Assembly (NCBI RefSeq): GCF_029581575.1
Contig: NZ_CP089975.1
Coordinates: 558,001 to 622,000, forward strand
DNA length: 64,000 bases
Direction of reading: 5' to 3'
From: Moraxella nasibovis
Lineage (GTDB): Bacteria; Pseudomonadota; Gammaproteobacteria; Pseudomonadales; Moraxellaceae
How positions within the stretch are numbered: the stretch's first letter is position 1; every line of letters starts with the position of its first letter. Positions 26,064 through 55,638 of this stretch are shown here, one piece after another. The translations under genes and the position numbers were made by a program. The notes under the pieces are model-generated. The model searched no databases, was not told where the DNA came from, and saw nothing but the letters and a program-made list of their open reading frames with translations.

Positions 26064-27551
26064 TTATTTTTTGGGCTGATAGACAAAGTTGTCCGTAGCA
26101 CTGGCGCTGTATTTGCCATCTTCGGTATATACCGTGATGGTGACAGGCGTGCTACCCACCTTCACGACATTGGCATCGCCGATGATACTCACTGGCAGAT
26201 CGTACGGCTCGTTGGCTTGTAGTGGCAGCTTGTCAAAGCGAGAACGCAGCGTCATGCCAGCGGTGTTGTCGCCGTCCAAGCGCACTCGATAGACTTGGCG
26301 TTCGTCAGTTTTATTGACGATTTTTAGCACATAGCTGTTTTCTACTTGACCGTGTCGCTCATGGCTCAGCTGCTTGCGGTCATGGCGGATTTCAAGCTCC
26401 AATGGCGCTCGCCCTGTGGCGACGAGTGTTGCAGCCACGATGGACGCACCCAGTACGAAAATGTAGGCAAAGATGCGAGGGCTGATGATTTTGGTTTTTT
26501 GTTTTTCGAGCATCTGACGCTCAGTGGTGTAGCGAATCAAGCCACGAGGGTAGCCGACTTTATCCATGATGTCATTACACGCATCGACGCAGGCGGCGCA
26601 CTGGATACACTCCACTTGCAAGCCATCACGGATGTCAATGCCAGTTGGGCAGACCTGCACGCACATATTGCAGTCCACGCAGTCGCCGTAGCCCTCTGGG
26701 TGGTCGCCTTTTTTGCGAGCACCACGAGGTTCGCCACGCTCGTAGTCGTATGAGACCAAAAGCGTGTCTTTGTCAAACATCACCGACTGGAAACGACCAT
26801 AAGGACACAGATGCACACACATATGCTCACGCATATAGCCACCATTGGTCTGGGTGACGAAAGTGATGAGCAGGAAAAATATCCATGTCATCTTGCTCCA
26901 ACCCATAAAAAATGGCGTATGCCCATTAAAAAACAGATAATCCGTACCGACAATAAAGGCAATAAAGGTCAATGCCGTAATTGCTGAGATGACAAGCCAA
27001 ATGGCGTGTACCGCCAGAGTCTTCATGATTTTCTCGGCATTCCAAGGCTGCTTGTCAAATTTGATGCGTTTATTACGCTCGCCGATGATCCATTTTTCAA
27101 CATGCTGATACAGATGTACATAGATAGTCTGCGGACAGGCATAGCCACACCACACACGCCCAGCATAGACCGTCACCATAAACAGCAGCATGGCGGCAAT
27201 GATGAACACAAAGGCAAAGAAATAAAAATCCTGCGGCATAAAAGTCGCCCCAAAGATATAAAACTTCGGCTCAATCACATCCAGCAAGATCGCCTGTCGC
27301 CCGTTCCAGCGAATCCAAGGGGCGACCAAAAATGCCACCAATATGGCATACATCGTAAACAGGCGAATGTTCTGATATTTACCCTTGACAAAGCGAGGAT
27401 GTACACGCTGCTTGGTGGCGTCCATGTCCTTTGAGGTGGGGATGATTTTCTCTGGTGGCGGACGCTGTTTTTTGGGCTTGGCGGTGGTGGGTGCGGCGTG
27501 TTTGTCGTCGCTTTTGGGTGGGATGGGTTTTGAATCTGGCTTGTCTGACAT
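26064..27551 (-). CDS. ccoG: Cytochrome c oxidase accessory protein CcoG (RdxA/FixG)
   Basis: A 495-residue inner-membrane ferredoxin-like protein needed for copper handling and assembly of cbb3 oxidase. A Pro/Lys-rich N-terminus of about 55 residues precedes five hydrophobic helices. CGYACPQT is at about residue 138; two 4Fe-4S clusters are indicated by CNMCVQVCP and CIQCAACVDACN (about residues 270-310). The C-terminal domain (from about 375) is an Ig-like fold of FixG type ending in the last 100 residues. The ATG at 27551 is used. ccoNOQP lie 12 kb away on the other strand. Confidence 0.95.
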   Translation of the reverse strand: MSDKPDSKPIPPKSDDKHAAPTTAKPKKQRPPPEKIIPTSKDMDATKQRVHPRFVKGKYQNIRLFTMYAILVAFLVAPWIRWNGRQAILLDVIEPKFYIFGATFMPQDFYFFAFVFIIAAMLLFMVTVYAGRVWCGYACPQTIYVHLYQHVEKWIIGERNKRIKFDKQPWNAEKIMKTLAVHAIWLVISAITALTFIAFIVGTDYLFFNGHTPFFMGWSKMTWIFFLLITFVTQTNGGYMREHMCVHLCPYGRFQSVMFDKDTLLVSYDYERGEPRGARKKGDHPEGYGDCVDCNMCVQVCPTGIDIRDGLQVECIQCAACVDACNDIMDKVGYPRGLIRYTTERQMLEKQKTKIISPRIFAYIFVLGASIVAATLVATGRAPLELEIRHDRKQLSHERHGQVENSYVLKIVNKTDERQVYRVRLDGDNTAGMTLRSRFDKLPLQANEPYDLPVSIIGDANVVKVGSTPVTITVYTEDGKYSASATDNFVYQPKK

Positions 27552-27700
27552 GATGAGTACCTTTGTTTTGCTGGCTAACTGGCAGCTGGCTTGGATTCAT
27601 GGATTTTGTCTATTGTAGCATTTTTTGGGGCGTTTGTGGGTGTTGTTGGCAAGTGTTTTTGTCATGATGATTGCCAATTTATAATTTTTACAAATGGATG

Positions 27701-27900
27701 GTAGGGGCGAAAAATCTTTCGCCCATTGGCATAAATACGGTCTGTGCGGTGGTACGGGCGAATATTATTCGCCCCTACGATAAAATCACGCACAACGCAA
27801 ATTGTGCGGTTAAATTGCAATTCGCCCCTACGGAAAACCTGTGTAAATGCCGTTCGGTAGGGGTGAAAAATATTCCACCCCTACGATAAAATCCTGCATA
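27701..27900. repeat. Cluster of three GTAGGGGCGAA-type palindromes
   Basis: Three palindromes of one kind: GGGCGAAA..TTTCGCCC at 27705-27724, GGGCGAAT..ATTCGCCC at 27755-27774, and GTAGGGGTG..CACCCCTAC at 27858-27884. Copies two and three are each followed by ACGATAAAATC and then a hairpin-like CGCACAACGCAA or TGCATAACGCAA. They look like REP/MITE-type non-coding repeats. The remaining part of the 27552-28701 gap, apart from the C-tract, is AT-rich and holds no convincing gene. Confidence 0.65.
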
Positions 27901-28335: not shown

Positions 28336-28344
28336 CCCCCCCCC
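28336..28344. repeat. Homopolymeric C9 tract upstream of the adhesin
   Basis: Nine consecutive C, 11 bp after a TATAAT-like hexamer (28320-28325) and 358 bp before the autotransporter start. Poly-G/C tracts near adhesin genes mediate phase variation in Moraxella catarrhalis (uspA1, hag). Here it lies outside the coding frame, so any effect would be on transcription. Confidence 0.55.
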
Positions 28345-28437: not shown

Positions 28438-28701
28438 ATATTTTTTTTAAATTGAATTTTTGATTTAATTAAATTAACTTTCAAAAATACGACTGATATT
28501 ATGATGCACAGCACCCCTGATATTCAGACACCCAAGTCCTTCCGCTCTGTGTCGGTGAGCTGCATGAGGTTCTTTTATCTTTTCAAGGTTTTTCAAGTTT
28601 TTTCACTCGTCGTCCAAGTCTCTCCCCATCCTAGCGATGGTGGTGCAGCCGTGGGCAGCGCATCGCCGAGCCTGATTCGGCATCTTTATAGGTAATCATC
28701 T

Positions 28702-30915
28702 ATGAACAACATCTATCGTGTGATTTATAACAAATCCACCCAAACTTTCCAAGCGGTCTGCGAATTCGCTCGTGCACAAGGCAAGGGCAGCACCACTACC
28801 GTCGGCAGCGGTGAGGCGCCGTCGGCAGTCGGCAGGCTCATCCGCTTTACGCTCATCATGTCGGGCATGATTTTATCGGCACAGGCAGTTGCAGCTACTG
28901 GCACAGAGTACCAAGCAGGCACTGATAATGTCTGTTATTTTGACACCGCAACTAACAGTGTTGTCTGTGGTAATGCGACCACCCAAGTAACCGATCAAGG
29001 CAAAAATGCTGTATCCGTCGGTATCGGCGCCGAAGCTCGTAATAATAATGACATTGCTATCGGTCAAGAGGCAGGCAACGGGCTAAAAGATCGTGGTACG
29101 AATTTTGATCCTGCAACAACTATATTCAAAAAAGATGGCGTAGACGCGCCAAATGCAGAAAGTATCGTAACCCATTCAAACATCAGTATCGGTAAACAAT
29201 CTGGCAAAGACAGCACAGGTATCGATATGATTAACCTTGGCAGCTTTGCTGGTCAAAATCTCAATAGTGCTGGCAGCAGTATGATCTCTATTGGTAAAAA
29301 TGCCAATAAATTTAAAACATTAACCAAGGTTGAAAAATCTGTTGCCATCGGTCATGGTGCAACAACAGAAGGCTCAAGCTCGGTCGCCATCGGTGATGGT
29401 GCAATTAACCAAGGCTATAAATCGGTTGTGATGGGGCCAGGTGCCAAAATAGAAAGAAATGCCTCTGGGATAACACCAGTAGACAGTGTTGTGTTTGGTG
29501 CGAGTGCTTATAGCAATCAAAGCAATGATGTGGTTATCGGTAGGGGTGCAGGTACACGAACTACTGGTGCAGGCGGTAATGTCATATTGGGTTCGGGTTC
29601 AGGGACTAGCTCTGACATTCAGCAAAATGTGATTATTGGTACTGATGCAGGTCATAATGTTAATTTTACTACTCCTGATAATAGGGGGGTTGTTTCTGAT
29701 TTAAATATCTTTATCGGTCAAGCAACTGGTCAAAATGTCAATGGGCGTGCCAATATCGCTATTGGTGAAAAAAACGCACAGTATGTGGGCAAGGTAAATC
29801 GAGCCAGCATAATGAAAGAGGCGATAGAGACACCACAAGCTAACAATAGCACGCAATTTACAATCCAAGAAGGCCAAGTATTTGATACAGACCGAAGAAG
29901 TGATTACAACTTCGCCATCGGTGCTCGTTCAGGCTCTAATGTGCTTGGTGGTGGCAATTATACTATTGGTGGCGGTAGTTATGTCGTTGGTACTGGCAAC
30001 TTATCGTTTGGTGACGGTTCTGGTTCATACATCAGCGGTAGTAATAATATCTCCATCGGAGCGGGTGCTGGTGTTGAAAACTTGTACGAGCAAAATGGTA
30101 AACTTCGTACACATTATGAAGCACTTAGCAAGCGTCAGGGTTCTATCTCTATTGGCCTGTATAGCAAAGGCGTGGCAAACCGTGCCATCGCTATTGGTAC
30201 GGGGATAGATCATAACACACCTGCAGCACGTGCGACCGCAACAGATTCGCTTGCGATCGGTACAGACAGTGTCGCCACAGGGGTCAATGCCACTTCTATT
30301 GGTAAAGCCGCCATTGCCACAGGCAAAAATGCCGTTGCGATTGGTAGCTCTACCCCAAACACTTATGAGTATTTTGATCGTGCAACAGGCAGATTACAAG
30401 ATTTGGCAGATAACAGTCACGAACATGCAGGTCGAGCCACTCGTGCCAATGCAGAAAACGCCGTTGCTATCGGTAATACCAGCCAAGCAAATGCTATCAA
30501 TTCTCTTGCGATTGGTACAGGGGCAAAAGCCACAGGCACACAATCCATCTCTATCGGTACAGGTAACGTGGTATCAGGTAATAACTCAGGTGCATTGGGT
30601 GACCCATCGATCGTCTCAGGTGCAGGCTCTTATACCGTTGGTAACGATAACGCTGTGGGTAGCACATCGACCAATGTCGGTGCCTTTGGTAACAACAACC
30701 AAATCGGTGCCACAGCCACTTATGATGCAGCTGGTAAATTACAGCTTGCCGATGGTCTGACTGACACCGCAGCGGTATCAGGCTCTCGTGTGGTAGGTAA
30801 CAACAACACCATCACCACCAACGAAACTTTCGTACTGGGCAACCGTGTAACCACTACCGCTGACAACTCAGTATTCTTAGGCACCGAGTCTGGCCTACAC
30901 TGCCAAAGGCGATAG
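28702..30915 (+). CDS. N-terminal open frame of the trimeric autotransporter
   Basis: This frame gives 737 residues: the ESPR signal peptide (about residues 1-66), then head repeats such as SVAIGDGAI, NISIGAGAG and NAVAIGNTS through to about residue 725. It leaves the true frame after FLGTES; the last residues (GLHCQRR) are out-of-frame and end at TAG. If translated alone it would be exported to the periplasm but has no stalk or anchor. The start is the ATG at 28702 with TAGGTAA upstream. Confidence 0.75.
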   Translation: MNNIYRVIYNKSTQTFQAVCEFARAQGKGSTTTVGSGEAPSAVGRLIRFTLIMSGMILSAQAVAATGTEYQAGTDNVCYFDTATNSVVCGNATTQVTDQGKNAVSVGIGAEARNNNDIAIGQEAGNGLKDRGTNFDPATTIFKKDGVDAPNAESIVTHSNISIGKQSGKDSTGIDMINLGSFAGQNLNSAGSSMISIGKNANKFKTLTKVEKSVAIGHGATTEGSSSVAIGDGAINQGYKSVVMGPGAKIERNASGITPVDSVVFGASAYSNQSNDVVIGRGAGTRTTGAGGNVILGSGSGTSSDIQQNVIIGTDAGHNVNFTTPDNRGVVSDLNIFIGQATGQNVNGRANIAIGEKNAQYVGKVNRASIMKEAIETPQANNSTQFTIQEGQVFDTDRRSDYNFAIGARSGSNVLGGGNYTIGGGSYVVGTGNLSFGDGSGSYISGSNNISIGAGAGVENLYEQNGKLRTHYEALSKRQGSISIGLYSKGVANRAIAIGTGIDHNTPAARATATDSLAIGTDSVATGVNATSIGKAAIATGKNAVAIGSSTPNTYEYFDRATGRLQDLADNSHEHAGRATRANAENAVAIGNTSQANAINSLAIGTGAKATGTQSISIGTGNVVSGNNSGALGDPSIVSGAGSYTVGNDNAVGSTSTNVGAFGNNNQIGATATYDAAGKLQLADGLTDTAAVSGSRVVGNNNTITTNETFVLGNRVTTTADNSVFLGTESGLHCQRR

Positions 30916-33900
30916 CACAGATGGCATCGGTGCAGTAACCGAGCCTGTCAATGTCAATGGCGTAAGCTATGGCGACTTTGCAGGTAAAACATCGGTCGGC
31001 GTGGTATCAGTGGGCGATGTTGGCAAAGAACGCCGTATCCAAAATGTCGCCGCAGGTCTAATCTCAGCGACTTCAACCGATGCGATTAACGGCTCACAGT
31101 TGTATGCCGTGGCGGATAAATTGGCTGCTGTTGATGCCGCAGCAAACCGCACCAATTATTTCCATGTAAACACTGACGCTCTCGATCAGCCTGCTGGCAA
31201 TCCTGACACCAATGAAGGCACGGTCGATGCTAAGGGTGGTGCTGTTGGTCAATATGCAGTCGCAGCAGGTATCGATGCTCAGGCGAAAGGATCTGCTGCC
31301 ATTGCCATCGGTTTAAATGCAGGTAAGGACTCAGAAGGCACCCTTACTCGAAATACAATCATGATCGGTAATCATGCTGGAAATCTCTCATCATTAGAAC
31401 AGGGTGTCTTGCTAGGTATTGGTGTTGGCACCAACCGAACAGGTGCTAATGTCATTGCTATTGGTGAGCATGCCGGCTCTTATCGCCCACCACAACTAGA
31501 TGTGTTCAATCCACCAGAACCAGATGATCAAGTTCATTGGCAAGATCTTGGCTATACGACCAACGAAGTACTTAGTAATTCAACTGTGATAGGTCGTTTT
31601 GCCGGGCTTAATGCAACGGGATTTTCTAACGACTATTTAGGTTGGAATGCAGGCGAACTTAGACATGGCGATGCCAATATTGCGATGGGTCATCTGGCGG
31701 GTGCGGCAGCTGGAGGCTATCTTGACCATACTGGCTCAAGAGTGGGTGTCATTGGCAGTTACAATGTTGCATTAGGCGCTGCTTCTGGGCAAGGCATAAA
31801 CGGTTACAATAATATTGCCATTGGCATTAACTCCAATCATAGCATTAATTTCTCAGAAGATAACAAAACCCCAACCAAATTAAACCCCGATGTAAAAGTC
31901 CCATATGTCAATGACGCCATCGCCATCGGTCAAGACACCACCGCCCAAAAAGACACCGCCATCGCCATCGGTAAAAATGCCAAGGCAGCAGTCGCTGAGG
32001 GTGATGTGGCACTGGGTGCAGACTCAGAGACTACCCAAGTAACACCAACTGCCAATGCAGCGGTCAATGGCATCACTTATGGCAACTTTGCAGGTGCAGC
32101 GCCGACCAGCGCAGTATCAATCGGCGCTGCTGGCAGTGAGCGTCAGCTTCAGAATGTCGCCGCAGGTCGTATCTCAGCGACTTCAACCGATGCGATTAAC
32201 GGCTCGCAGTTGTACATCGTAGCAGATGAGCTGAGTAAAAGAATCGGCACTGAACCTGAAACCTATTTCCATGTAAATACAGGTGCAAACAGAGGTACAG
32301 GCAATGCTGTCACCAACTTGGGTAAGATCAGTGAGGCGGCTGGTGCTACTGCACCTGGCGCCATCACAGGCGGTATCAATGCCCAAGCAACCGAAGGTGG
32401 TGCCATCGCCATCGGTCAAGACAGCCGTGCTGTAGCCAATCATGCCATCGCCATTGGCGTGGAGGCAGGTAAAGAGTCAACCGAGCCCACAGGAACCATC
32501 ATGATCGGCGAACAGGCTGGTTACCGCACATCAGCACAGAGCAGTGTTCTTTTGGGCCGTATGTCTGGTCATAGCCGCACAGCTTCTGGCATCGTTGCGA
32601 TTGGTACTGATGCTGCCAGTTATGATCTTACAGAGGAACAAAACCAAATGGGCATGTCCTATCTGGCTTATACCACGGCGATCGGTATGTCCGCTGCCAC
32701 CAACGCAACAGGTCATTATAATGACTATGTTGGTGGTCAGGCAGGCTACACTAGGCATGGCGATTATAATGTCGCCATGGGCTATTTAGCGGGCGCAGGC
32801 AAAGCAAGTAGCAATGAAGTGGATCTAACGGGTATGAGAGCAGGCTCTATGGGCGACAATAATGTCTCATTAGGCACCTACTCCGCCTTGGCTTTAAATG
32901 GCAATGATAATATCACCATCGGTCAGAAGGCTAACCAAGGCTGGGCATTTACTGAAGACAACATGACCGCAACCGAAGAGAAGCCTGACATCAAAGTCGC
33001 CTATGTTAATGACACCATCGCCATCGGTCAAGACACCAAGGCTCAAAAAGACACCGCCATCGCCATCGGTAAAAATGCCAAGGCAGCGGCCGCTGTCGGT
33101 GATGTGGCACTAGGTGCTGGCTCAGAAACCCTCGCCGTAACCCCAACCTCTAATGCGACTGTCAATGGCATCACTTACGGCAACTTTGCAGGTAGTGCGC
33201 CTAAGAGCGCTGTGTCTGTTGGTGCAAAAGATAGCGAGCGCCAGATCCAGCATGTCGCCGCAGGTCGTATCACAGCAGACAGCACCGATGCGATTAACGG
33301 CAGCCAGCTGTATATGGTCACCCAAGGCACGCTAGACCAAATGCCAGTGGTTTATACCAAAGCTGATGGCACTAAAGTATTCAAACAGCCAGATGGTAAG
33401 TTCTTAGATGCTGACGGTAATGAGGTTGATGCAGGCGATGTAATTGCCTCGATGAACAATCCACAAAACAGCACCACAGCTCCGATGACCTTGACTAACA
33501 TCAAGTCAAACTTGGCACCGGTGACTACGGCAACTACAGAACAGCCAAATGCAAACCACCCAGTATTGCTAGAAGAAAACGCTAACAATGCTGCAACGCT
33601 AGGCGATGTACTAAACGCTGGTTGGAACCTACAAGAAAATGGTGATGCAAGAGATGTTGTAGTACACGCTGACACCGTAAACTTCGTTAATGGTGCAGGT
33701 ACAACAGCAGTTGTAGAAACAGATGGAAAAACTTCAACCATCAAATATGATGTGAATGTAGATGGTGAGACCATCACAACGAAGACAGATCCAAACGATC
33801 CGACTAAGACTGTGATTACTGTCAACACCACACCATTGGCTGATGCGGATAATGACGGTAAAGTGGACGAACCTGCTGCACCAAATGCACTTGTTACGGC

Positions 33901-36900
33901 ACAAACTGTGGCGAATGCAATCAACAACTCAGGTTGGAAATTGGATGTATCACAATCAGAAGGTCAAGCAGTTGGTACGGGTGAAGAGCTGATTAACCCA
34001 TCAGACAAAGTGACTATTGATGCAGGTAAAAACATCAGCATTACTCAAGCAGGTAGTACAATCAGCATTGCAACCGCTGATGATGTTGAGTTTGCAAGCG
34101 TGAAAACCAATAGCCTAGAAGTACCAACTGACAACGGCAGCTCGGTGAAGATTGACAACAACGGCGTTGATGTTGGTGGCAATGTAATCAGCAATGTAGC
34201 GGATGGTGTTGAAGATGGTGATGCTGTCAATGTAAGTCAGTTGAATGCAGCCAAAGCAAATGTTGTAGGCGAAGAAGGTATTGAAGTAACTTCTGAATCA
34301 ACTCCAGAAGGTACCACTTACACCGTTTCTGCTAAGACTGATGGTGTAACCACCTATGTAGACAACAATGGTAACATTGCTGCCATCACAGGTGATCTAA
34401 ACACATCAACCGATGGTTCAGTAAGCTCTGAGATGCCAAATTCATTGGTAACAGGCGATCAAGTAGCCAACGCCATCAACAACTCAGGCTTTAATGTAAC
34501 CTCAGGTGCTACTGGTTCAGGTGAAGTTGATGGTAAAACCACAGAACTGATCAACCCATCAGAAACTGTGACTTTCCAAGCTGGTGATAACTTGGTTCTA
34601 AACCAAGCTGAAAATGTATTCACATACAGCTTGAATGATGACATCAACATCAACAGCGTACAGTTCAACGACGGTCCTAAGATCACGAGCGATGGCGACA
34701 ACATCAAAGTTGAAGGTCCTAACGGCGAAGCTACTAAGATCACTAATGTTGCAGACGGTACTGGTGACAACGACGCAGTCAATGTAAGTCAGCTTAAAGA
34801 TGCTCAAGCAGCAGCAACTACCAAAGTTGAAGAAGCTGACGGCATCAATGTAGAAGCCACTGAAAATGAAGACGGCTCTACCACTTACACCGTTTCTGCT
34901 AAGACTGATGGTGTAACCACCTATGTAGACAACAATGGTAACATTGCTGCCATCACAGGTGATCTAAACACATCAACCGATGGTTCAGTAAGCTCTGAGA
35001 TGCCAAATTCATTGGTAACAGGCGATCAAGTAGCCAACGCCATCAACAACTCAGGCTTTAATGTAACCTCAGGTGCTACTGGTTCAGGTGAAGTTAATGG
35101 TACAACCACAGAACTGATCAACCCATCAGAAACTGTGACTTTCCAAGCTGGCGATAACTTGGTTCTAAACCAAGCTGAAAATGTATTCACATACAGCTTG
35201 AATGATGACATCAACATCAACAGCGTACAGTTCAACGACGGTCCTAAGATCACGAGCGATGGCGACAACATCAAAGTTGAAGGTCCTAACGGCGAAGCTA
35301 CTAAGATCACTAATGTTGCAGACGGTACTGATGACAACGACGCAGTCAATGTAAGTCAGCTTAAAGATGCTCAAGCAGCAGCAACCACCAAAGTTGAAGA
35401 AGCTGACGGCATCAATGTAGAAGCCACTGAAAATGCAGACGGCTCTACCACTTACACTGTTTCTGCTAAGACTGATGGCACTACCACGAAGATTGATGAC
35501 AACGGCAACATCGCAGCTGTTACCACCACCTTCACACCATCTACTGATGGTAAAGTAGGCGCACCTGCTGACAATGGCGATTCACTAGTAACTGCTAACA
35601 CCGTTGCTGATGCCATCAACAACTCTGGTTGGAACCTAGCAGCTGATGGTACTGAGGGTACTGAGCTGATCAACCCATCAGACACTGTTACCTTCAAAAC
35701 TGGTAGCGACAACCTAACTGTTAAGCGTGAAGGTGCTGACATCATTTATGACCTAGCAGATGACATCAATGTAAGCAGCGTACAGTTCAACGATGGTCCT
35801 AAGATCACGAGCGATGGCGACAACATCAAAGTTGAAGGTCCTAACGGCGAAGCTACTAAGATCACCAATGTGGCTGATGGTACTGGTGACAACGACGCAG
35901 TCAATGTAAGTCAGCTTAAAGATGCTCAAGCAGCAGCAACCACCAAAGTTGAAGAAGCTGACGGCATCAATGTAGAAGCCACTGAAAATGCAGACGGCTC
36001 TACCACTTACACTGTTTCTGCTAAGACTGATGGCGTAACCACCTATGTAGACAACAATGGTAACATTGCTGCCATCACAGGTGATCTAAACACATCAACC
36101 GATGGTTCAGTAAGCTCTGAAATGCCAAATTCATTGGTAACAGGCGATCAAGTAGCCAACGCTATTAACAACTCTGGTTGGAACTTGCTAAACAATGGCG
36201 CACAGCGTGATGTGGTTCGCCCAGCCGATGCTGTAAACTTCATCAACGGTAAAGGCACGACAGCTGTGGTAGAAACTGCTGCTGATGGTAAGTCTAGCAC
36301 CGTGAAGTTTGATATCAATGTAGATGGTGAGACCATCACAGTTGATGAAGACGGCAACTTGACAGTGAATAAAGATGCGGTTGATACAAATACTGTAACC
36401 ACCGTAACTGCTGGCAAGAATATGGTTGTAACGAACACTGGCACAGACGATGCACCAAACTACGAAGTTAAAACTGCTGATGATGTGAACTTCAACAGCG
36501 TAACCGTAGGTCCTGTAGTGATTAACCAAAACGGCATCAATGCTGGTGATAAGAAGATCACCAATGTGGCAGCTGGCGACATCTCAGCCACCAGCAAAGA
36601 TGCGGTAAATGGTAGCCAGTTGTATGCGTTGGCAGATCAGTTCAATACTAAGATTGAAACTGCCAAGACTGTGGTAGATTCGGCTGATAAGTCAGTGACT
36701 GTTACACCAAGCACTACCGATACTGGTGCAACTAAATACGATCTGTCAGTGAAAACTGATGGTGATACCATTAAGAAAAATCCTGATGGTTCATTGGCTG
36801 TGAATACCACACCATTGACTAACAATGCTAATGGTGCGGTCAATACTCCAGCGGCACCAAATGCGATTGCAACCGCAGGTGATGTGGCAAATGCCATCAA

Positions 36901-37519
36901 TAACTCAGGCTTTACTTTGACAGCCCAAGGCGCTAATGGCTCTGTGGTAAATCCAGGTGAAACTGTTGACATGAACAACACTGATGGCAATATTGTCATC
37001 ACCAAACCAGCTGATAGTAACAATGTTACCTATAATCTGGCTAAAGATGTGAAAGTTGACAGCGTAACTGCTGGCGGCACAGAGGTAAATAACGATGGCA
37101 TCACCATCGCAGCACCGACTGAGAACAACCCTGACAATGTGGTCAGCCTAACTCAGACTGGTCTGAACAACGGTGGCAACCGCATCACCAATGTCGCACC
37201 AGGTGTGGATGCAACTGATGCTGTCAATGTCAGCCAGCTACAAGGCACAGCGAACTACCTGAACAACCGCATTGACGGTGTGGCAGACGATGCCAACGCA
37301 GGTGTTTCATCAGCGATGGCGATGGCAGCACTACCACAAGCTTACATCCCAGGTAAGTCAATGCTAACTGGTGGTATCGCCAGCTACAATGGCGAAGGTG
37401 CTGTGGCAGTGGGCTTCTCGAAGCTGTCTGACAACGGCCGCTGGGTGCTTAAAGTGTCTGGCTCTGCCGACACCCAAGGCAATGCTGGTGGTGCAGTGGG
37501 TGCAGGTTTCCACTTCTAA
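30893..37519 (+). CDS. C-terminal open frame of the trimeric autotransporter
   Basis: The frame resumes with AYTAKGDSTDG, directly continuing the head of the upstream frame, and runs 2,208 residues to the anchor. First possible independent starts are GTG/ATG codons near 31001, without signal sequence or ribosome binding site, so it should not be made as a functional protein. It contains necks ISATSTDAINGSQLY (two close copies plus variants), two repeated heads, Asp/Asn/Thr-rich stalk modules and four membrane strands at the end, with terminal Phe as in outer-membrane barrels. Confidence 0.75.
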   Translation, partial: AYTAKGDSTDGIGAVTEPVNVNGVSYGDFAGKTSVGVVSVGDVGKERRIQNVAAGLISATSTDAINGSQLYAVADKLAAVDAAANRTNYFHVNTDALDQPAGNPDTNEGTVDAKGGAVGQYAVAAGIDAQAKGSAAIAIGLNAGKDSEGTLTRNTIMIGNHAGNLSSLEQGVLLGIGVGTNRTGANVIAIGEHAGSYRPPQLDVFNPPEPDDQVHWQDLGYTTNEVLSNSTVIGRFAGLNATGFSNDYLGWNAGELRHGDANIAMGHLAGAAAGGYLDHTGSRVGVIGSYNVALGAASGQGINGYNNIAIGINSNHSINFSEDNKTPTKLNPDVKVPYVNDAIAIGQDTTAQKDTAIAIGKNAKAAVAEGDVALGADSETTQVTPTANAAVNGITYGNFAGAAPTSAVSIGAAGSERQLQNVAAGRISATSTDAINGSQLYIVADELSKRIGTEPETYFHVNTGANRGTGNAVTNLGKISEAAGATAPGAITGGINAQATEGGAIAIGQDSRAVANHAIAIGVEAGKESTEPTGTIMIGEQAGYRTSAQSSVLLGRMSGHSRTASGIVAIGTDAASYDLTEEQNQMGMSYLAYTTAIGMSAATNATGHYNDYVGGQAGYTRHGDYNVAMGYLAGAGKASSNEVDLTGMRAGSMGDNNVSLGTYSALALNGNDNITIGQKANQGWAFTEDNMTATEEKPDIKVAYVNDTIAIGQDTKAQKDTAIAIGKNAKAAAAVGDVALGAGSETLAVTPTSNATVNGITYGNFAGSAPKSAVSVGAKDSERQIQHVAAGRITADSTDAINGSQLYMVTQGTLDQMPVVYTKADGTKVFKQPDGKFLDADGNEVDAGDVIASMNNPQNSTTAPMTLTNIKSNLAPVTTATTEQPNANHPVLLEENANNAATLGDVLNAGWNLQENGDARDVVVHADTVNFVNGAGTTAVVETDGKTSTIKYDVNVDGETITTKTDPNDPTKTVITVNTTPLADADNDGKVDEPAAPNALVTAQTVANAINNSGWKLDVSQSEGQAVGTGEELINPSDKVTIDAGKNISITQAGSTISIATADDVEFASVKTNSLEVPTDNGSSVKIDNNGVDVGGNVISNVADGVEDGDAVNVSQLNAAKANVVGEEGIEVTSESTPEGTTYTVSAKTDGVTTYVDNNGNIAAITGDLNTSTDGSVSSEMPNSLVTGDQVANAINNSGFNVTSGATGSGEVDGKTTELINPSETVTFQAGDNLVLNQAENVFTYSLNDDININSVQFNDGPKITSDGDNIKVEGPNGEATKITNVADGTGDNDAVNVSQLKDAQAAATTKVEEADGINVEATENEDGSTTYTVSAKTDGVTTYVDNNGNIAAITGDLNTSTDGSVSSEMPNSLVTGDQVANAINNSGFNVTSGATGSGEVNGTTTELINPSETVTFQAGDNLVLNQAENVFTYSLNDDININSVQFNDGPKITSDGDNIKVEGPNGEATKITNVADGTDDNDAVNVSQLKDAQAAATTKVEEADGINVEATENADGSTTYTVSAKTDGTTTKIDDNGNIAAVTTTFTPSTDGKVGAPADNGDSLVTANTVADAINNSGWNLAADGTEGTELINPSDTVTFKTGSDNLTVKREGADIIYDLADDINVSSVQFNDGPKITSDGDNIKVEGPNGEATKITNVADGTGDNDAVNVSQLKDAQAAATTKVEEADGINVEATENADGSTTYTVSAKTDGVTTYVDNNGNIAAITGDLNTSTDGSVSSEMPNSLVTGDQVANAINNSGWNLLNNGAQRDVVRPADAVNFINGKGTTAVVETAADGKSSTVKFDINVDGETITVDEDGNLTVNKDAVDTNTVTTVTAGKNMVVTNTGTDDAPNYEVKTADDVNFNSVTVGPVVINQNGINAGDKKITNVAAGDISATSKDAVNGSQLYALADQFNTKIETAKTVVDSADKSVTVTPSTTDTGATKYDLSVKTDGDTIKKNPDGSLAVNTTPLTNNANGAVNTPAAPNAIATAGDVANAINNSGFTLTAQGANGSVVNPGETVDMNNTDGNIVITKPADSNNVTYNLAKDVKVDSVTAGGTEVNNDGITIAAPTENNPDNVVSLTQTGLNNGGNRITNVAPGVDATDAVNVSQLQGTANYLNNRIDGVADDANAGVSSAMAMAALPQAYIPGKSMLTGGIASYNGEGAVAVGFSKLSDNGRWVLKVSGSADTQGNAGGAVGAGFHF
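31157..33325 (+). repeat. Two diverged head modules of about 369 and 354 residues
   Basis: The units start at YFHVNT (31157 and 32264, 1,107 bp apart) and both end in DAINGSQLY plus a short helix. Shared landmarks are IMIG, ATNATGxxNDY, RHGDxNxAMGxLAGA and AIAIGQDTxAQKDTAIAIGK. The protein patterns are alike throughout while DNA identity is high only in blocks, indicating an old internal duplication followed by divergence. Confidence 0.8.
34321..36176 (+). repeat. Tandem stalk repeats of 567, 567 and 555 bp
   Basis: Units begin at 34321, 34888 and 35455, with a partial unit from 36010 to about 36176. The first two are almost identical over the whole 567 bp. The third shares both ends but has a different middle (35480-35775). 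Each encodes about 189 residues with VTTYVDNNGNIAAITGDLNT, INSVQFNDGPKITSDGD, and NDAVNVSQLKDAQ. Perfect stretches of several hundred bp would allow recombinational gain or loss of stalk units. Confidence 0.9.
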
Positions 37520-37637: not shown

Positions 37638-38573
37638 ATGAAAAAAATTACCGCATTAAGTGCTGCTGTGGCAATGCTTGCACTAACAGGCTGTATGGGT
37701 ACAAAGCAAGTCAGCCAAAACATCTCAGATAAAGGCACTATTGCTGCTGAGGACATCTACTTTCCTAAGTTGGATGACGCATGGCAAAAAGACGGTCAAT
37801 TCCCAAACCGTGAAAACCTGTCTAAGATCCGCCCAGGTATCGCCAAAGATGAGCTGTATCAGCTGATCGGTCGTCCGCATTTTAACGAATCAAACCGTGC
37901 TCGTGAGTGGGACTACATCATGAAGTTTTATAAGGCTGACGACAGCGTCAAAGTCTGCCAATATAAAGTCATTTTTGATGAGAAGTTCCGTGGTCAAGAG
38001 TTCTACTGGCTGCCAGCGGACTGTGCTGCTTATGCCAAGCCGCCAGCAGCTGGTCAGACCATCATTGTTAATCAGCCAGCACCAGTTGCACCAGCAGAGC
38101 CGATTGTCAAAGAGCGCATCAACCTAGAAGCTGATGCTCTGTTCAAGTTTGACAAGTGGAAGCTTGAAGACATGCTACCAGCAGGTCGTGCAAGATTGGA
38201 TGAGTTGGCAGCTCAGCTACTTGCTTGGGAAGCTCGTGGTGAGTCTCGTGTACATCTGACAGGTCACACCGACCGCTACGGCGATGACATGTACAACATG
38301 AACCTGTCAATGCTGCGTGCTAACACTGTTCGTCAATACCTGATCTCAAAAGGCGTGACCGCAAGCACGCTGACCGCATCAGGCGCAGGCGAATCACAGC
38401 CGCTACCGCATGTGGTCTGCGACATCAATGCACCAAAATCTGTACAGATCGTGTGCTTGCAGCCAAACCGCCGTGTAGAAGTGGATGTGACGGTTTATGC
38501 TCGTGTTGCCGAAGGTGGCGTACAGCAAATCCAAATGAACCAAGATTACCAAAACTTCAATCAAGCTCAGTAA
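37638..38573 (+). CDS. tpgA: TpgA-like lipoprotein (BamE-like plus OmpA-like domain)
   Basis: A 311-residue lipoprotein: signal peptide with lipobox LTGC (Cys19), an SmpA/OmlA (BamE-like) domain at about residues 55-130 (LSKIRPGIAKDELYQLIGRP), a Pro/Ala linker, and a C-terminal OmpA-type peptidoglycan-binding domain at about 165-300 (LTGHTDRYGDDMYNMNLSML). This architecture and the place right after a trimeric autotransporter match TpgA of Acinetobacter, which ties the adhesin AtaA to peptidoglycan and supports its display. The gap to the adhesin stop is 118 bp, so it may share the transcript or have its own promoter. A strong terminator follows. Confidence 0.88.
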   Translation: MKKITALSAAVAMLALTGCMGTKQVSQNISDKGTIAAEDIYFPKLDDAWQKDGQFPNRENLSKIRPGIAKDELYQLIGRPHFNESNRAREWDYIMKFYKADDSVKVCQYKVIFDEKFRGQEFYWLPADCAAYAKPPAAGQTIIVNQPAPVAPAEPIVKERINLEADALFKFDKWKLEDMLPAGRARLDELAAQLLAWEARGESRVHLTGHTDRYGDDMYNMNLSMLRANTVRQYLISKGVTASTLTASGAGESQPLPHVVCDINAPKSVQIVCLQPNRRVEVDVTVYARVAEGGVQQIQMNQDYQNFNQAQ

Positions 38574-39750: not shown

Positions 39751-41241
39751 ATGAGTCTATCTAAAACAGCAGTAGTGCCGAATGTCGACCATGAGTATGA
39801 AATCACGATTGTGCGTTTCTTTACCATCATGGCGGTATTTTGGGGCATCGTTGGCATGACAGTGGGTGTGTTCATCGCATCTCAGCTAGCTTGGCCAGCG
39901 CTTAATTTTGATACTTCTTGGCTGTCTTTCGGACGACTAAGACCGCTTCACACGAATGCGGTGATTTTTGCGTTTGGGGGTTCAGCACTTTTTGCAACTT
40001 CTTATTACATCGTACAGCGTACTTGTAAGACTCGCCTATTTGCGCCGTATTTGGCGTGGTTCACCTTCTGGGGTTGGCAGGCGGTCATCGTCGCTGCGGT
40101 CATCACCTTGCCGCTAGGCTTTACTTCTGGCAAAGAATATGCCGAGCTAGAATGGCCGATCGACATCATGATTGCGCTGGTGTGGGTGTCTTATGCCATC
40201 GTATTCTTTGGTACGCTGATCAAGCGCCAGACCTCGCACATCTATGTGGCGAACTGGTTCTTTGCTGCGTTCATCATCACGATCGCACTACTTCACATCG
40301 TCAATAACCTAGCAATCCCTGTGGGTGCGTTTAAATCGTATTCACTGTTTGGTGGTGCGACTGATGCGATGGTGCAATGGTGGTACGGTCATAATGCCGT
40401 AGGTTTCTATCTGACCGCAGCATTCTTGGGTATGATGTATTATTTTATTCCTGTGCAAGTAGGTCGTCCGGTTTATTCATATCGTCTATCTATCGTTCAC
40501 TTTTGGGCATTGATTGCGTCTTATATGTGGGCAGGTGGTCACCATCTACACTATTCAGCACTGCCTGACTGGACACAGTCTTTAGGCATGGTGTTCTCAT
40601 TGATTCTATTTGCGCCATCTTGGGGTGGTATGATTAACGGTGTCTTGACGCTGTCTGGCAGCTGGGATAAGCTGCGTACTGACCCGATCATTCGTTTCTT
40701 GATTGTGGCATTGTCATTCTATGCGATGAGTACCTTTGAAGGTCCGATGCTGTCTATCAAGGCGGTGAACGCCATCAGCCACAACACCGACTGGACAGTA
40801 GGTCATGTTCACTCTGGTGCATTAGGCTGGGTGGGTATGATCACCATCGGTTCGATCTATGTGCTGCTGCCACGCATCTGGAACAAAGCTAAGATGTACT
40901 CCACCAATCTGATCACCGTGCATTTCTGGCTTGCGACCACAGGTACTGTCCTATACATCGTGGCACTTTGGATCTCTGGTATCACTCAGGGCATGATGTG
41001 GCGTGCCACCAACCCAGATGGTACTTTGGCATACGACTTCATTCAGACTGTCGTGGTCTCACACTGGCCGTTTGTGGTGCGTGCGCTCGGTGGTGCATTG
41101 TATGTGGCGGGTATGTTTGTGATGGCATACAACTGCTACAAGACCATCAAAATGCCAAGCGTGCCTGAGCACATCGCAGAGCCAGAAGAAGTGAATACTG
41201 GTCGTGATGAAGTGTTTGATAATGACACCGTCAAGGCTTAA
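39751..41241 (+). CDS. ccoN: cbb3-type cytochrome c oxidase subunit I
   Basis: A 496-residue catalytic haem-copper subunit with about twelve helices. Seen are [18 protein letters not shown] (haem b His), [14 protein letters not shown] with a CuB histidine, the double His of [14 protein letters not shown], and [16 protein letters not shown] near the C-terminal haem ligands. It reduces oxygen to water under low oxygen and pumps protons. First gene of ccoNOQP, with 11 bp to ccoO. The ATG at 39751 is used; upstream AGGAAAATATCC supplies the ribosome binding site. Confidence 0.97.
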
Positions 41242-41252
41242 GGGGGAGAGTC

Positions 41253-41891
41253 ATGTCAAATATTACTCATGAAATCGTAGAAAAAAACACAGGTCTGTTG
41301 GTCATCTTTATCGTCATTGCGATCAGCTTTGCCACTTTGGTTGAGATTGTACCTTTGATTTTTGATGCCAATGACCCTGAAAATGGCGGCGTAAATAAGC
41401 CGCTGCCAAACATGCGTCCTTGGACAGCGTTAGAGCTTGAAGGTCGTGATATTTATATCCGTGAAGGCTGCCATGTGTGCCATACACAGATGGTACGCCC
41501 ATTGCGTGCAGAAGTTGAGCGTTATGGACCATACAGCCGTGCTGCTGAGTCGGCTTGGGATCACCCATTCCTATGGGGTTCTAAGCGTACAGGTCCAGAT
41601 CTTGCTCGTGTGGGTGGTCGTTATTCTGACCAGTGGCATGTAGATCACTTGATCGACCCACGCTCTGTTGTGCCTGATTCGGTGATGCCTGCTTATCCTT
41701 GGCTTGCCAAGAATGAAGTGAATGGTGTAAAAGTGCAACAAAAAATGCGCATCTTTAAAGAGCGTTTTGGCTTGCCTTATACCGAAGAAGACATTGCAGC
41801 AGCACCTGACCAAGTACAAGGTGCGACTGAGCTTGATGCGGTGGTTGCCTACCTGCAGCAGCTTGGTATTGCGATGCAAGGTCAGCGCTAA
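41253..41891 (+). CDS. ccoO: cbb3-type cytochrome c oxidase subunit II (monohaem)
   Basis: A 212-residue membrane-anchored cytochrome c. One N-terminal helix (about residues 13-35) is followed by a periplasmic domain with the haem site [12 protein letters not shown] and the Met ligand region SVMPAYPWL. It passes electrons from CcoP to CcoN. GGGGGAG precedes the ATG. Its TAA stop overlaps the ATG of ccoQ by one base (TAATG). Confidence 0.97.
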
Positions 41892-42067
41892 TGAACTGGG
41901 GCGTTTTACATAGTATTGCGACGGTGGCGGCGTTCATCGCCTTCATCGGCATCGCATGGTGGGCATACTCACCAAAGAATAAAAAACGCTTTGAAGAAGA
42001 TGCACAACTTGCGCTCGATGACAAGGATCTCTTGTCATTCAAAGAGCGCACTAAGGATACACAATGA
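41891..42067 (+). CDS. ccoQ: cbb3-type cytochrome c oxidase subunit CcoQ
   Basis: A 58-residue protein, [20 protein letters not shown] followed by IAWWAYSPKNKKRFEEDAQL. One membrane helix, then the FixQ motif WAYSPKNKKRFEEDA. CcoQ stabilises the oxidase complex. It starts at the ccoO stop (TAATG) and its TGA overlaps the ccoP start (ATGA), so the four genes are translationally coupled. Confidence 0.93.
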   Translation: MNWGVLHSIATVAAFIAFIGIAWWAYSPKNKKRFEEDAQLALDDKDLLSFKERTKDTQ

Positions 42068-43134
42068 GCTTTTTTTGGGGTTCTTGGATTACTGTCCTAT
42101 CACTCGGCTGCTGGTTATTTATCTTCGGCGTGTTGGTGTGGACACTAAAATCAAAGCCTGTCTTGGAAGAAGATGAGACGACAGGTCACTCATACGACGG
42201 CATTCGAGAGTATGATAAGCCATTACCGAAGTGGTGGTTGGTGATTTTCTTTGGTACACTTATTTGGGGTTTGGGTTACTTCATTTTGTTCCCTGCCATT
42301 CAGCCGAATGCGTGGAAAGGCATCACTACGGTTGAGGTCGATGGTCAAAAAGTGCCTTGGACATCAGAGAATGAACTAAACAGCCAGCTACAAGCCAACA
42401 ACAAAGTCTTCACTGAAAACTTTGAACAAGGCATTTTGGCAAACGCAGGTGCGAGCGAAGCGACTGCCGTGTTGGCAAAATTAAACGAACTGCAAGCGCA
42501 AAAGAAAGATCAGGCAGAGCCATCTAAGGAACTACAAGATCAGATTGATGCGCAAGTAGCGCTACTTGCCCCTTATGTTGATAAGTTATCGACTGATCCA
42601 GAAGCATTAAAAGTGGGTAACCGTCTGTTCCTACAAAACTGTGCGCTGTGCCACGGCTCAAATGCCAAGGGTGGCTTGGGTTATCCTGATTTGACGGATA
42701 ATGATTGGCTGTTTGGCGGTGAGGCTGAAAATGTCCTACTGTCAATCCATAATGGTCGTGTTGGTGCGATGGCAGCATGGCAAAAGCAGCTGGGTGAATC
42801 TGGCGTGCGTGCAGCCGCAGAGTATGTGCTTGACATCTCGGGCAACCAAAACGGCTACGACTTAGACCAAGCGCAGGTCGCTCAGGGTAAAGCCATCTTT
42901 GAGCAAAACTGCGTGCTGTGCCACGGTCCTGATGCCAAAGGCTTGACCACCATGGGTGCGCCAAACTTGACCGATGACATTTGGCTGTTTGGTGGCGATC
43001 GTGAAGCCATTCGTACTACCATTCGTCATGGTCGTTCTGGTGTGATGCCAGAATGGCAAACCAAGCTGGGTAATGAGCGCATCATGCTACTAGCAGCTTA
43101 TGTGCGTTCACTGTCACAAAACCCAACCGAATAA
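42064..43134 (+). CDS. ccoP: cbb3-type cytochrome c oxidase subunit III (dihaem)
   Basis: A 356-residue membrane-bound dihaem cytochrome c. There are two N-terminal hydrophobic segments (about residues 5-25 and 57-78), and a charged, partly helical insert of about 80 residues. The haem sites CALCHGSNAKGG (about residue 195) and CVLCHGPDAKG (about 281) each have a distal Met region (GRVGAMAAWQ, GRSGVMPEWQ). It takes electrons from soluble cytochromes. It overlaps ccoQ by 4 bp; a strong terminator ends the operon. ccoI and ccoS are not in the window. Confidence 0.97.
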   Translation: MSFFWGSWITVLSLGCWLFIFGVLVWTLKSKPVLEEDETTGHSYDGIREYDKPLPKWWLVIFFGTLIWGLGYFILFPAIQPNAWKGITTVEVDGQKVPWTSENELNSQLQANNKVFTENFEQGILANAGASEATAVLAKLNELQAQKKDQAEPSKELQDQIDAQVALLAPYVDKLSTDPEALKVGNRLFLQNCALCHGSNAKGGLGYPDLTDNDWLFGGEAENVLLSIHNGRVGAMAAWQKQLGESGVRAAAEYVLDISGNQNGYDLDQAQVAQGKAIFEQNCVLCHGPDAKGLTTMGAPNLTDDIWLFGGDREAIRTTIRHGRSGVMPEWQTKLGNERIMLLAAYVRSLSQNPTE

Positions 43135-55420: not shown

Positions 55421-55511
55421 GGAAGCTTGGCAGAGCGGTTGAATGCACCGGTCTTGAAAACCGGCGTGGGTTTGTAGCCCACCGAGAGTTCGAATCTCTC
55501 AGCTTCCGCCA
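55421..55511 (+). tRNA. tRNA-Ser (TGA), copy 1
   Basis: A 91-nt class II tRNA: acceptor GGAAGCT with AGCTTCC, anticodon arm CCGGT-CTTGAAA-ACCGG with anticodon TGA, a long variable arm (GTGGGTTTGTAGCCCAC), T-arm GAGAGTTCGAATCTCTC, discriminator G and encoded CCA. Confidence 0.97.
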
Positions 55512-55547
55512 TTATTTTTATTTATCCCTTTGGGGATTGACCGCTTA

Positions 55548-55638
55548 GGAAGCTTGGCAGAGCGGTTGAATGCACCGGTCTTGAAAACCGGCGTGGGTTT
55601 GTAGCCCACCGAGAGTTCGAATCTCTCAGCTTCCGCCA
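55548..55638 (+). tRNA. tRNA-Ser (TGA), copy 2
   Basis: Identical over all 91 nt to the copy 127 bp upstream, and followed by the same ATTATTTTT. The two are a recent or homogenised tandem duplication transcribed from the same promoter, ending at the hairpin at 55659. Confidence 0.97.

What the first reader, a model, noticed from the sequence alone, without database searches (positions are those of the whole stretch)
30886..30916. Single-base frameshift splits the giant adhesin
Frame 1 ends in GLHCQRR-stop while the next frame continues exactly with the expected AYTAKGDSTDG. Removing one G at 30892/30893 (TGGCC to TGCC) restores a 2,938-residue protein with both signal peptide and anchor intact. 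The site is not a homopolymer, so slippage is not the obvious cause. Possible reasons: a recent null mutation, or a sequencing error at a GGCC site that may be methylated.
Basis: seen in the sequence. Interest (0 to 1): 0.6.

Follow-up and report, generated by a model that had tools for sequence, protein, structure and literature searches.

The report
Frameshift-broken giant trimeric adhesin gene
A very large bacterial surface-adhesin gene is split in two by a single small reading-frame change; it is probably a real, recent knock-out of a kind already known for such adhesins, although a sequencing slip cannot be ruled out without the raw reads.

Summary
Window 28702-37519 (+) holds one trimeric autotransporter adhesin (TAA) gene in two frames: frame 1 (28702-30915) has the extended signal peptide and YadA head, frame 2 (open 30881-37519) has stalk and anchor. 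Uninterrupted relatives align across the site, leaving frame 1 near 30891 and resuming in frame 2 at 30887-30893. It is not a phase-variation tract: the gene has no long homopolymer, whereas another TAA of this genome and one in a relative are shifted at poly-G tracts. The methylated-GGCC idea is not supported: no C5-cytosine methylase was found. A recent real null is favoured over an assembly error: no other gene-breaking frameshift was seen in 111 kb compared with a relative (72% detection rate), the same locus in another species is broken independently by a repeat-element insertion, and single-base frameshift loss is published for the giant TAA BadA. The gene also shares a 97%-identical 1.07-kb head module with a second adhesin in the genome, and in one relative an inversion appears to break within the adhesin. 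Reads and same-species isolates were unavailable, so an error remains possible (about 0.3).

The parts
28702..30915 (+). Frame-1 ORF, 737 aa: extended signal peptide (ESPR) and YadA head repeats; first part of the broken adhesin
28702..28836 (+). ESPR domain (PF13018), residues 1-45
30881..30915 (+). Stretch in which the reading frame must change (both frames open); relatives place it at about 30887-30893
30881..37519 (+). Frame-2 open frame: further head modules, YadA stalk repeats and membrane anchor; second part of the broken adhesin, without a signal peptide
31156..32227 (+). Head module 97.4% identical to the N-terminal head of the second TAA of this genome (L008:11681-12752, - strand)
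37334..37516 (+). YadA_anchor domain (PF03895)
37638..38573 (+). TpgA-like OmpA-family lipoprotein gene; a homolog follows the TAA in most relatives examined
28336..28344 (+). C9 tract 358 bp upstream of the start codon; possible promoter-region slippage tract, untested
26064..27551 (-). ccoG, conserved left neighbour of the locus
39751..43134 (+). ccoN, ccoO and ccoP, conserved right neighbours of the locus

Best explanation
The gene is a YadA-type trimeric autotransporter adhesin of about 2.9 thousand residues, inactivated by a recent small frame change outside any slippage tract. Shown: one ancestral reading frame is split in two, the signal peptide lies in one part and the anchor in the other, and uninterrupted relatives run straight across the site. 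Inferred: translation stops after 737 residues; that product could be exported but has no anchor, while the second part has no signal peptide and would not be exported. This adhesin would therefore be missing from the surface, and the change would not be readily reversible, unlike poly-G phase variation. A second TAA in the genome has an intact ORF and may still be made.
For: Frame anatomy; uninterrupted relatives across the site; no homopolymer in the gene; no gene-breaking frameshift in 111 kb of G000 coding DNA compared with G009, with 43 of 60 artificial shifts recovered; no stop in either part, so neutral decay since loss is under about 1.3% substitutions per site; independent loss of the same locus in G005 by element insertion; published, protein-verified single-bp loss of the giant TAA BadA (PMC8859334); 27 PCR/Sanger-confirmed pseudogenes in M. 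bovoculi (PMC4073114).
Against: No reads and no second isolate could be examined. A single undecayed lesion in a long repetitive gene is also what one assembly error would look like; the 95% upper limit allows about 0.3 such errors in a gene of this length.
Confidence: 0.65

Rival explanations
1. Assembly or base-calling error: the gene is intact in the living strain.
For: Only one lesion, with no other decay in 8.8 kb; the junction overlaps GGCC, a word 20-fold depleted in the genome, which a newly introduced base, real or false, would explain better than an old one.
Against: No other gene-breaking frameshift in 111 kb compared; the genome is one contig rated 99.98% complete; the site is not a homopolymer; no C5-cytosine methylase was found that could modify GGCC.
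Confidence: 0.3
2. Reversible phase variation at this site.
For: Poly-G switching is real in TAAs of this genus and genome, and known for Hag (PMC1931440).
Against: There is no homopolymer or short tandem repeat at the site.
Confidence: 0.03
3. Programmed ribosomal or transcriptional frameshifting makes the full-length protein.
For: Both frames look coding on either side of the junction, as recoding would also give.
Against: No recognisable slippery motif in 30881-30915 by inspection; relatives encode the protein in a single frame.
Confidence: 0.02

Closest known systems
BadA of Bartonella henselae, frameshift nulls such as strain Berlin-I (PMC8859334)
   Same: Giant TAA lost through a small frameshift (a single-bp deletion in Berlin-I), at a locus that also shuffles modules with related copies.
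   Different: There the loss was verified at protein level in named isolates; here it is read from one assembly. Another genus and another domain layout.
Hag/MID of Moraxella catarrhalis (PMC1931440)
   Same: Large YadA-like TAA with an N-terminal head, disrupted by a frame change.
   Different: Hag is switched reversibly at a G tract near the start of the ORF; the window site is not a repeat and lies about 2.2 kb into the gene.
UspA1/UspA2 recombination in Moraxella catarrhalis (PMC3458076)
   Same: Exchange of modules between TAA genes, as the 97.4%-identical head module suggests here.
   Different: A different pair of adhesins; exchange here is inferred from identity only, and was not observed.
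Ata/TpgA of Acinetobacter (NCBIfam NF033481 and NF047726)
   Same: TAA gene followed by a TpgA-like OmpA-family lipoprotein gene; partial profile matches.
   Different: Scores far below the curated cut-offs, so neither Ata nor TpgA membership is claimed.

Membership tests
Trimeric autotransporter adhesin (YadA-like, type Vc) | C-terminal YadA anchor domain | tested here: met
   PF03895, E 1.8e-14, last 61 residues of the frame-2 part
Trimeric autotransporter adhesin (YadA-like, type Vc) | Head repeats and coiled stalk | tested here: met
   PF05658 in the frame-1 part, PF05662 with nine stretches in the frame-2 part
Trimeric autotransporter adhesin (YadA-like, type Vc) | N-terminal signal for export | tested here: met
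   ESPR PF13018, residues 1-45 of the frame-1 part
Trimeric autotransporter adhesin (YadA-like, type Vc) | Signal, passenger and anchor in one open frame | tested here: not met
   Signal and anchor lie in different frames; the locus is filed as a broken TAA gene
Poly-G phase-variable adhesin (Hag type) | Frame change in a homopolymer or short tandem repeat | tested here: not met
   No run of 7 or more G/C or 8 or more A/T in the gene, no tandem repeat at the site
Recent null allele (pseudogene) | Uninterrupted relatives across the lesion | tested here: met
   intact ORFs at the same locus or from the same family
Recent null allele (pseudogene) | Lesion present in the living strain | not testable with these tools
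   No reads and no same-species isolates held
TpgA (NF047726) for 37638-38573 | Curated score cut-off of the family | tested here: not met
   124.1 bits against a cut-off of 350; described as TpgA-like only

The most novel reading that the evidence does not exclude
The adhesin locus between ccoG and ccoNOP is a hot spot in this genus in which a giant adhesin is repeatedly rebuilt (module exchange with a paralog, inversion breakpoint) and repeatedly lost by unrelated lesions (small frame change here, repeat-element insertion in G005), which would suggest that lasting loss of this adhesin is favoured in some hosts, on top of reversible poly-G switching of other adhesins.
Probability: 0.2. Interest if true: 0.5.

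Novelty: new member of a known kind. Interest (0 to 1): 0.27.

Why it matters
If real, the two ORFs should be annotated as one inactivated adhesin rather than two genes, and the strain should lack one of its giant surface fibres. It would add a case in which adhesin loss comes from a non-repeat mutation, beside loss by element insertion in a relative and poly-G switching of other adhesins. If it is an error, a large surface antigen is mis-annotated in a genome that stands for its species.

Tried and rejected
Methylated GGCC as error source: no PF00145 methylase; PF01555 N6/N4 methylase matches exist, so N4-cytosine methylation is not strictly excluded. Phase variation at the site: no repeat. 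Programmed frameshift: no slippery motif seen, and relatives use one frame. Apparent broken TAAs in G016 and G019 were set aside because each holds a 100-N scaffold gap. A codon-bias screen of 384 kb gave the adhesin as its only strong frame switch, but calibration showed only 3% sensitivity, so it is not used. The homolog screen's one G000 candidate (565384) appeared in both directions near the N-terminus of two full-length ORFs and is not a gene break. The genome-contig scan gave one distant MAG only. No tool named the species; Moraxella is an inference (best plasmid TpgA-like hit Moraxella osloensis, 64% identity; gene content). I considered whether the module exchange at 31156 caused the frame change and found no evidence for it.

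Full report
WHAT IS THERE. The window lies in a single-contig genome of 2.23 Mb (G000, positions 558001-622000). At 28702 an ORF starts on the + strand with an extended signal peptide and YadA head repeats and ends at 30915. Frame 2 has its last upstream stop at 30878-30880 and is open from 30881 to 37519, carrying head modules, stalk repeats and the YadA anchor. Neither part is a complete adhesin: signal and anchor, both needed for an outer-membrane trimer (general knowledge of type Vc secretion), lie in different frames.

IS IT ONE GENE? Yes. Relatives from the same genus were aligned to the region by tblastn. Uninterrupted homologous ORFs match frame 1 up to about 30891 and frame 2 from 30887-30893 onward. 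In one case (G008, L024) consecutive residues 378 and 379 fall on either side of the junction. Here relatives read NSVFLGxxSAYTxK, which the window shows across its two frames.

WHAT KIND OF LESION? The gene has no G/C run of 7 or more and no A/T run of 8 or more; the nearest runs, C9 at 28336 and T8 at 28441, are upstream of the start codon. True slippage tracts occur in related genes. In G004, two TAA copies compared over 620 bp differ only by one G in a poly-G tract, and one is out of frame. In the window's own genome a third TAA (L047:6745-11199, C1 about 1715.7-1720.2 kb) has its signal-peptide codons out of frame with the body at a poly-G tract. The second TAA (C1 about 213.7-217.9 kb) is an intact 1,419-codon ORF with a 12-G tract just upstream of its start. 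The window lesion is of a different type and would not be readily reversible.

MUTATION OR ERROR? Reads were not available, and no second isolate of this species is held. Indirect tests: (1) In 111 kb of G000 coding DNA compared with relative G009, no gene-breaking frameshift was seen, with 43 of 60 artificial shifts recovered (control). That gives an upper limit of about one undetected indel per 27 kb, so at most about 0.3 expected in 8.8 kb, with a central guess nearer 0.05. (2) The genome is one contig rated 99.98% complete. (3) With no stop in either part, neutral decay since inactivation is below about 1.3% substitutions per site; if real, the loss is recent. (4) GGCC, which overlaps the junction, is 20-fold depleted (96 observed, 1,940 expected in 384 kb). 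A random single-base duplication would create a GGCC about 3.9% of the time, while only 0.1% of bases lie in one. This fits a newly introduced base, mutation or error, better than an old one, and does not separate the two. (5) No C5-cytosine methylase was found, and a GGCC that exists only if the disputed base is real cannot have caused that base to be miscalled. I put a real recent null at 0.65 and an error at 0.3; these are judgements, not computed values.

THE LOCUS IN RELATIVES. The order ccoG (opposite strand), TAA, TpgA-like lipoprotein, ccoNOP is conserved in several relatives. In G001 the TAA there is intact (3,786 codons). In G005 it is interrupted just after the signal peptide by a repeat element of about 134 bp with terminal inverted repeats, flanked by an 8-bp direct repeat; 41 full-length, near-identical copies were listed in that genome. 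In G009 the ccoG side and the ccoN side lie about 0.84 Mb apart, each next to an intact TAA, the two TAAs in opposite orientation, with synteny to G000 running in opposite directions on the two sides. An inversion through two adhesin genes would give this. Counting TAAs whose ESPR and anchor lie on one gap-free contig (my tally), 16 are intact and three are broken by three different lesions: poly-G slip (G004), element insertion (G005) and the window's frame change.

MODULE EXCHANGE. Window 31156-32227 is 97.4% identical to the paralog's head, while other related stretches of the two genes are 79-82% identical. The segment begins about 264 bp after the frame change. It points to recent exchange between the two adhesins, comparable to recombination among UspA genes (PMC3458076). 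I found no evidence that the exchange caused the frame change.

COMPARISON WITH THE KNOWN. The closest precedent is BadA of Bartonella henselae, lost in strain Berlin-I by a single-bp deletion and confirmed at protein level (PMC8859334). M. catarrhalis Hag is switched at a G tract near the start of its ORF (PMC1931440). The M. bovoculi type-strain paper reports 27 pseudogenes confirmed by PCR and Sanger sequencing (PMC4073114). The finding is a plausible further member of a known kind.

LIMITS. The neighbour 37638-38573 is TpgA-like but scores below that family's cut-off. Loss of surface display is inferred from domain layout, not measured. Selection for loss at this locus is a conjecture resting on two broken copies.

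Noticed in passing
L047:6745-11199 (own genome, C1 about 1715.7-1720.2 kb, - strand): A third TAA (1,484 codons) has its signal-peptide codons in another frame across a poly-G tract, with a hexamer repeat upstream: looks like a phase-variable gene in the OFF state.
   Followed up: partly
L029:13718-13851 (G005): A 134-bp repeat element with terminal inverted repeats interrupts the related adhesin; 41 full-length near-identical copies listed in G005, only diverged partial matches in G000, G001 and G009.
   Followed up: partly
L036, L043, L044 (G009) against G000 C1:563-661 kb: The two flanks of the adhesin locus are about 0.84 Mb apart in G009, each beside a TAA in opposite orientation: probable inversion through two adhesin genes.
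   Followed up: partly
G000 C1:398001-782000, window included: Strong avoidance of ACGT, GGCC, CGCG and CCGG (observed/expected 0.04-0.12), although no C5-cytosine methylase was found; ACGT is absent from the window outside the adhesin.
   Followed up: partly
window 28336-28344 and L008:12946-12957: C9 upstream of the window TAA and a 12-G tract (C12 on the + strand) just upstream of the second TAA: possible expression-switching tracts.
   Followed up: no
window 27700-27890: Repeated GTAGGGGCGAA-like motifs in the intergenic region between ccoG and the adhesin.
   Followed up: no
window 55421-55638: Two tandem tRNA-Ser (tga) genes with equal Rfam scores.
   Followed up: no
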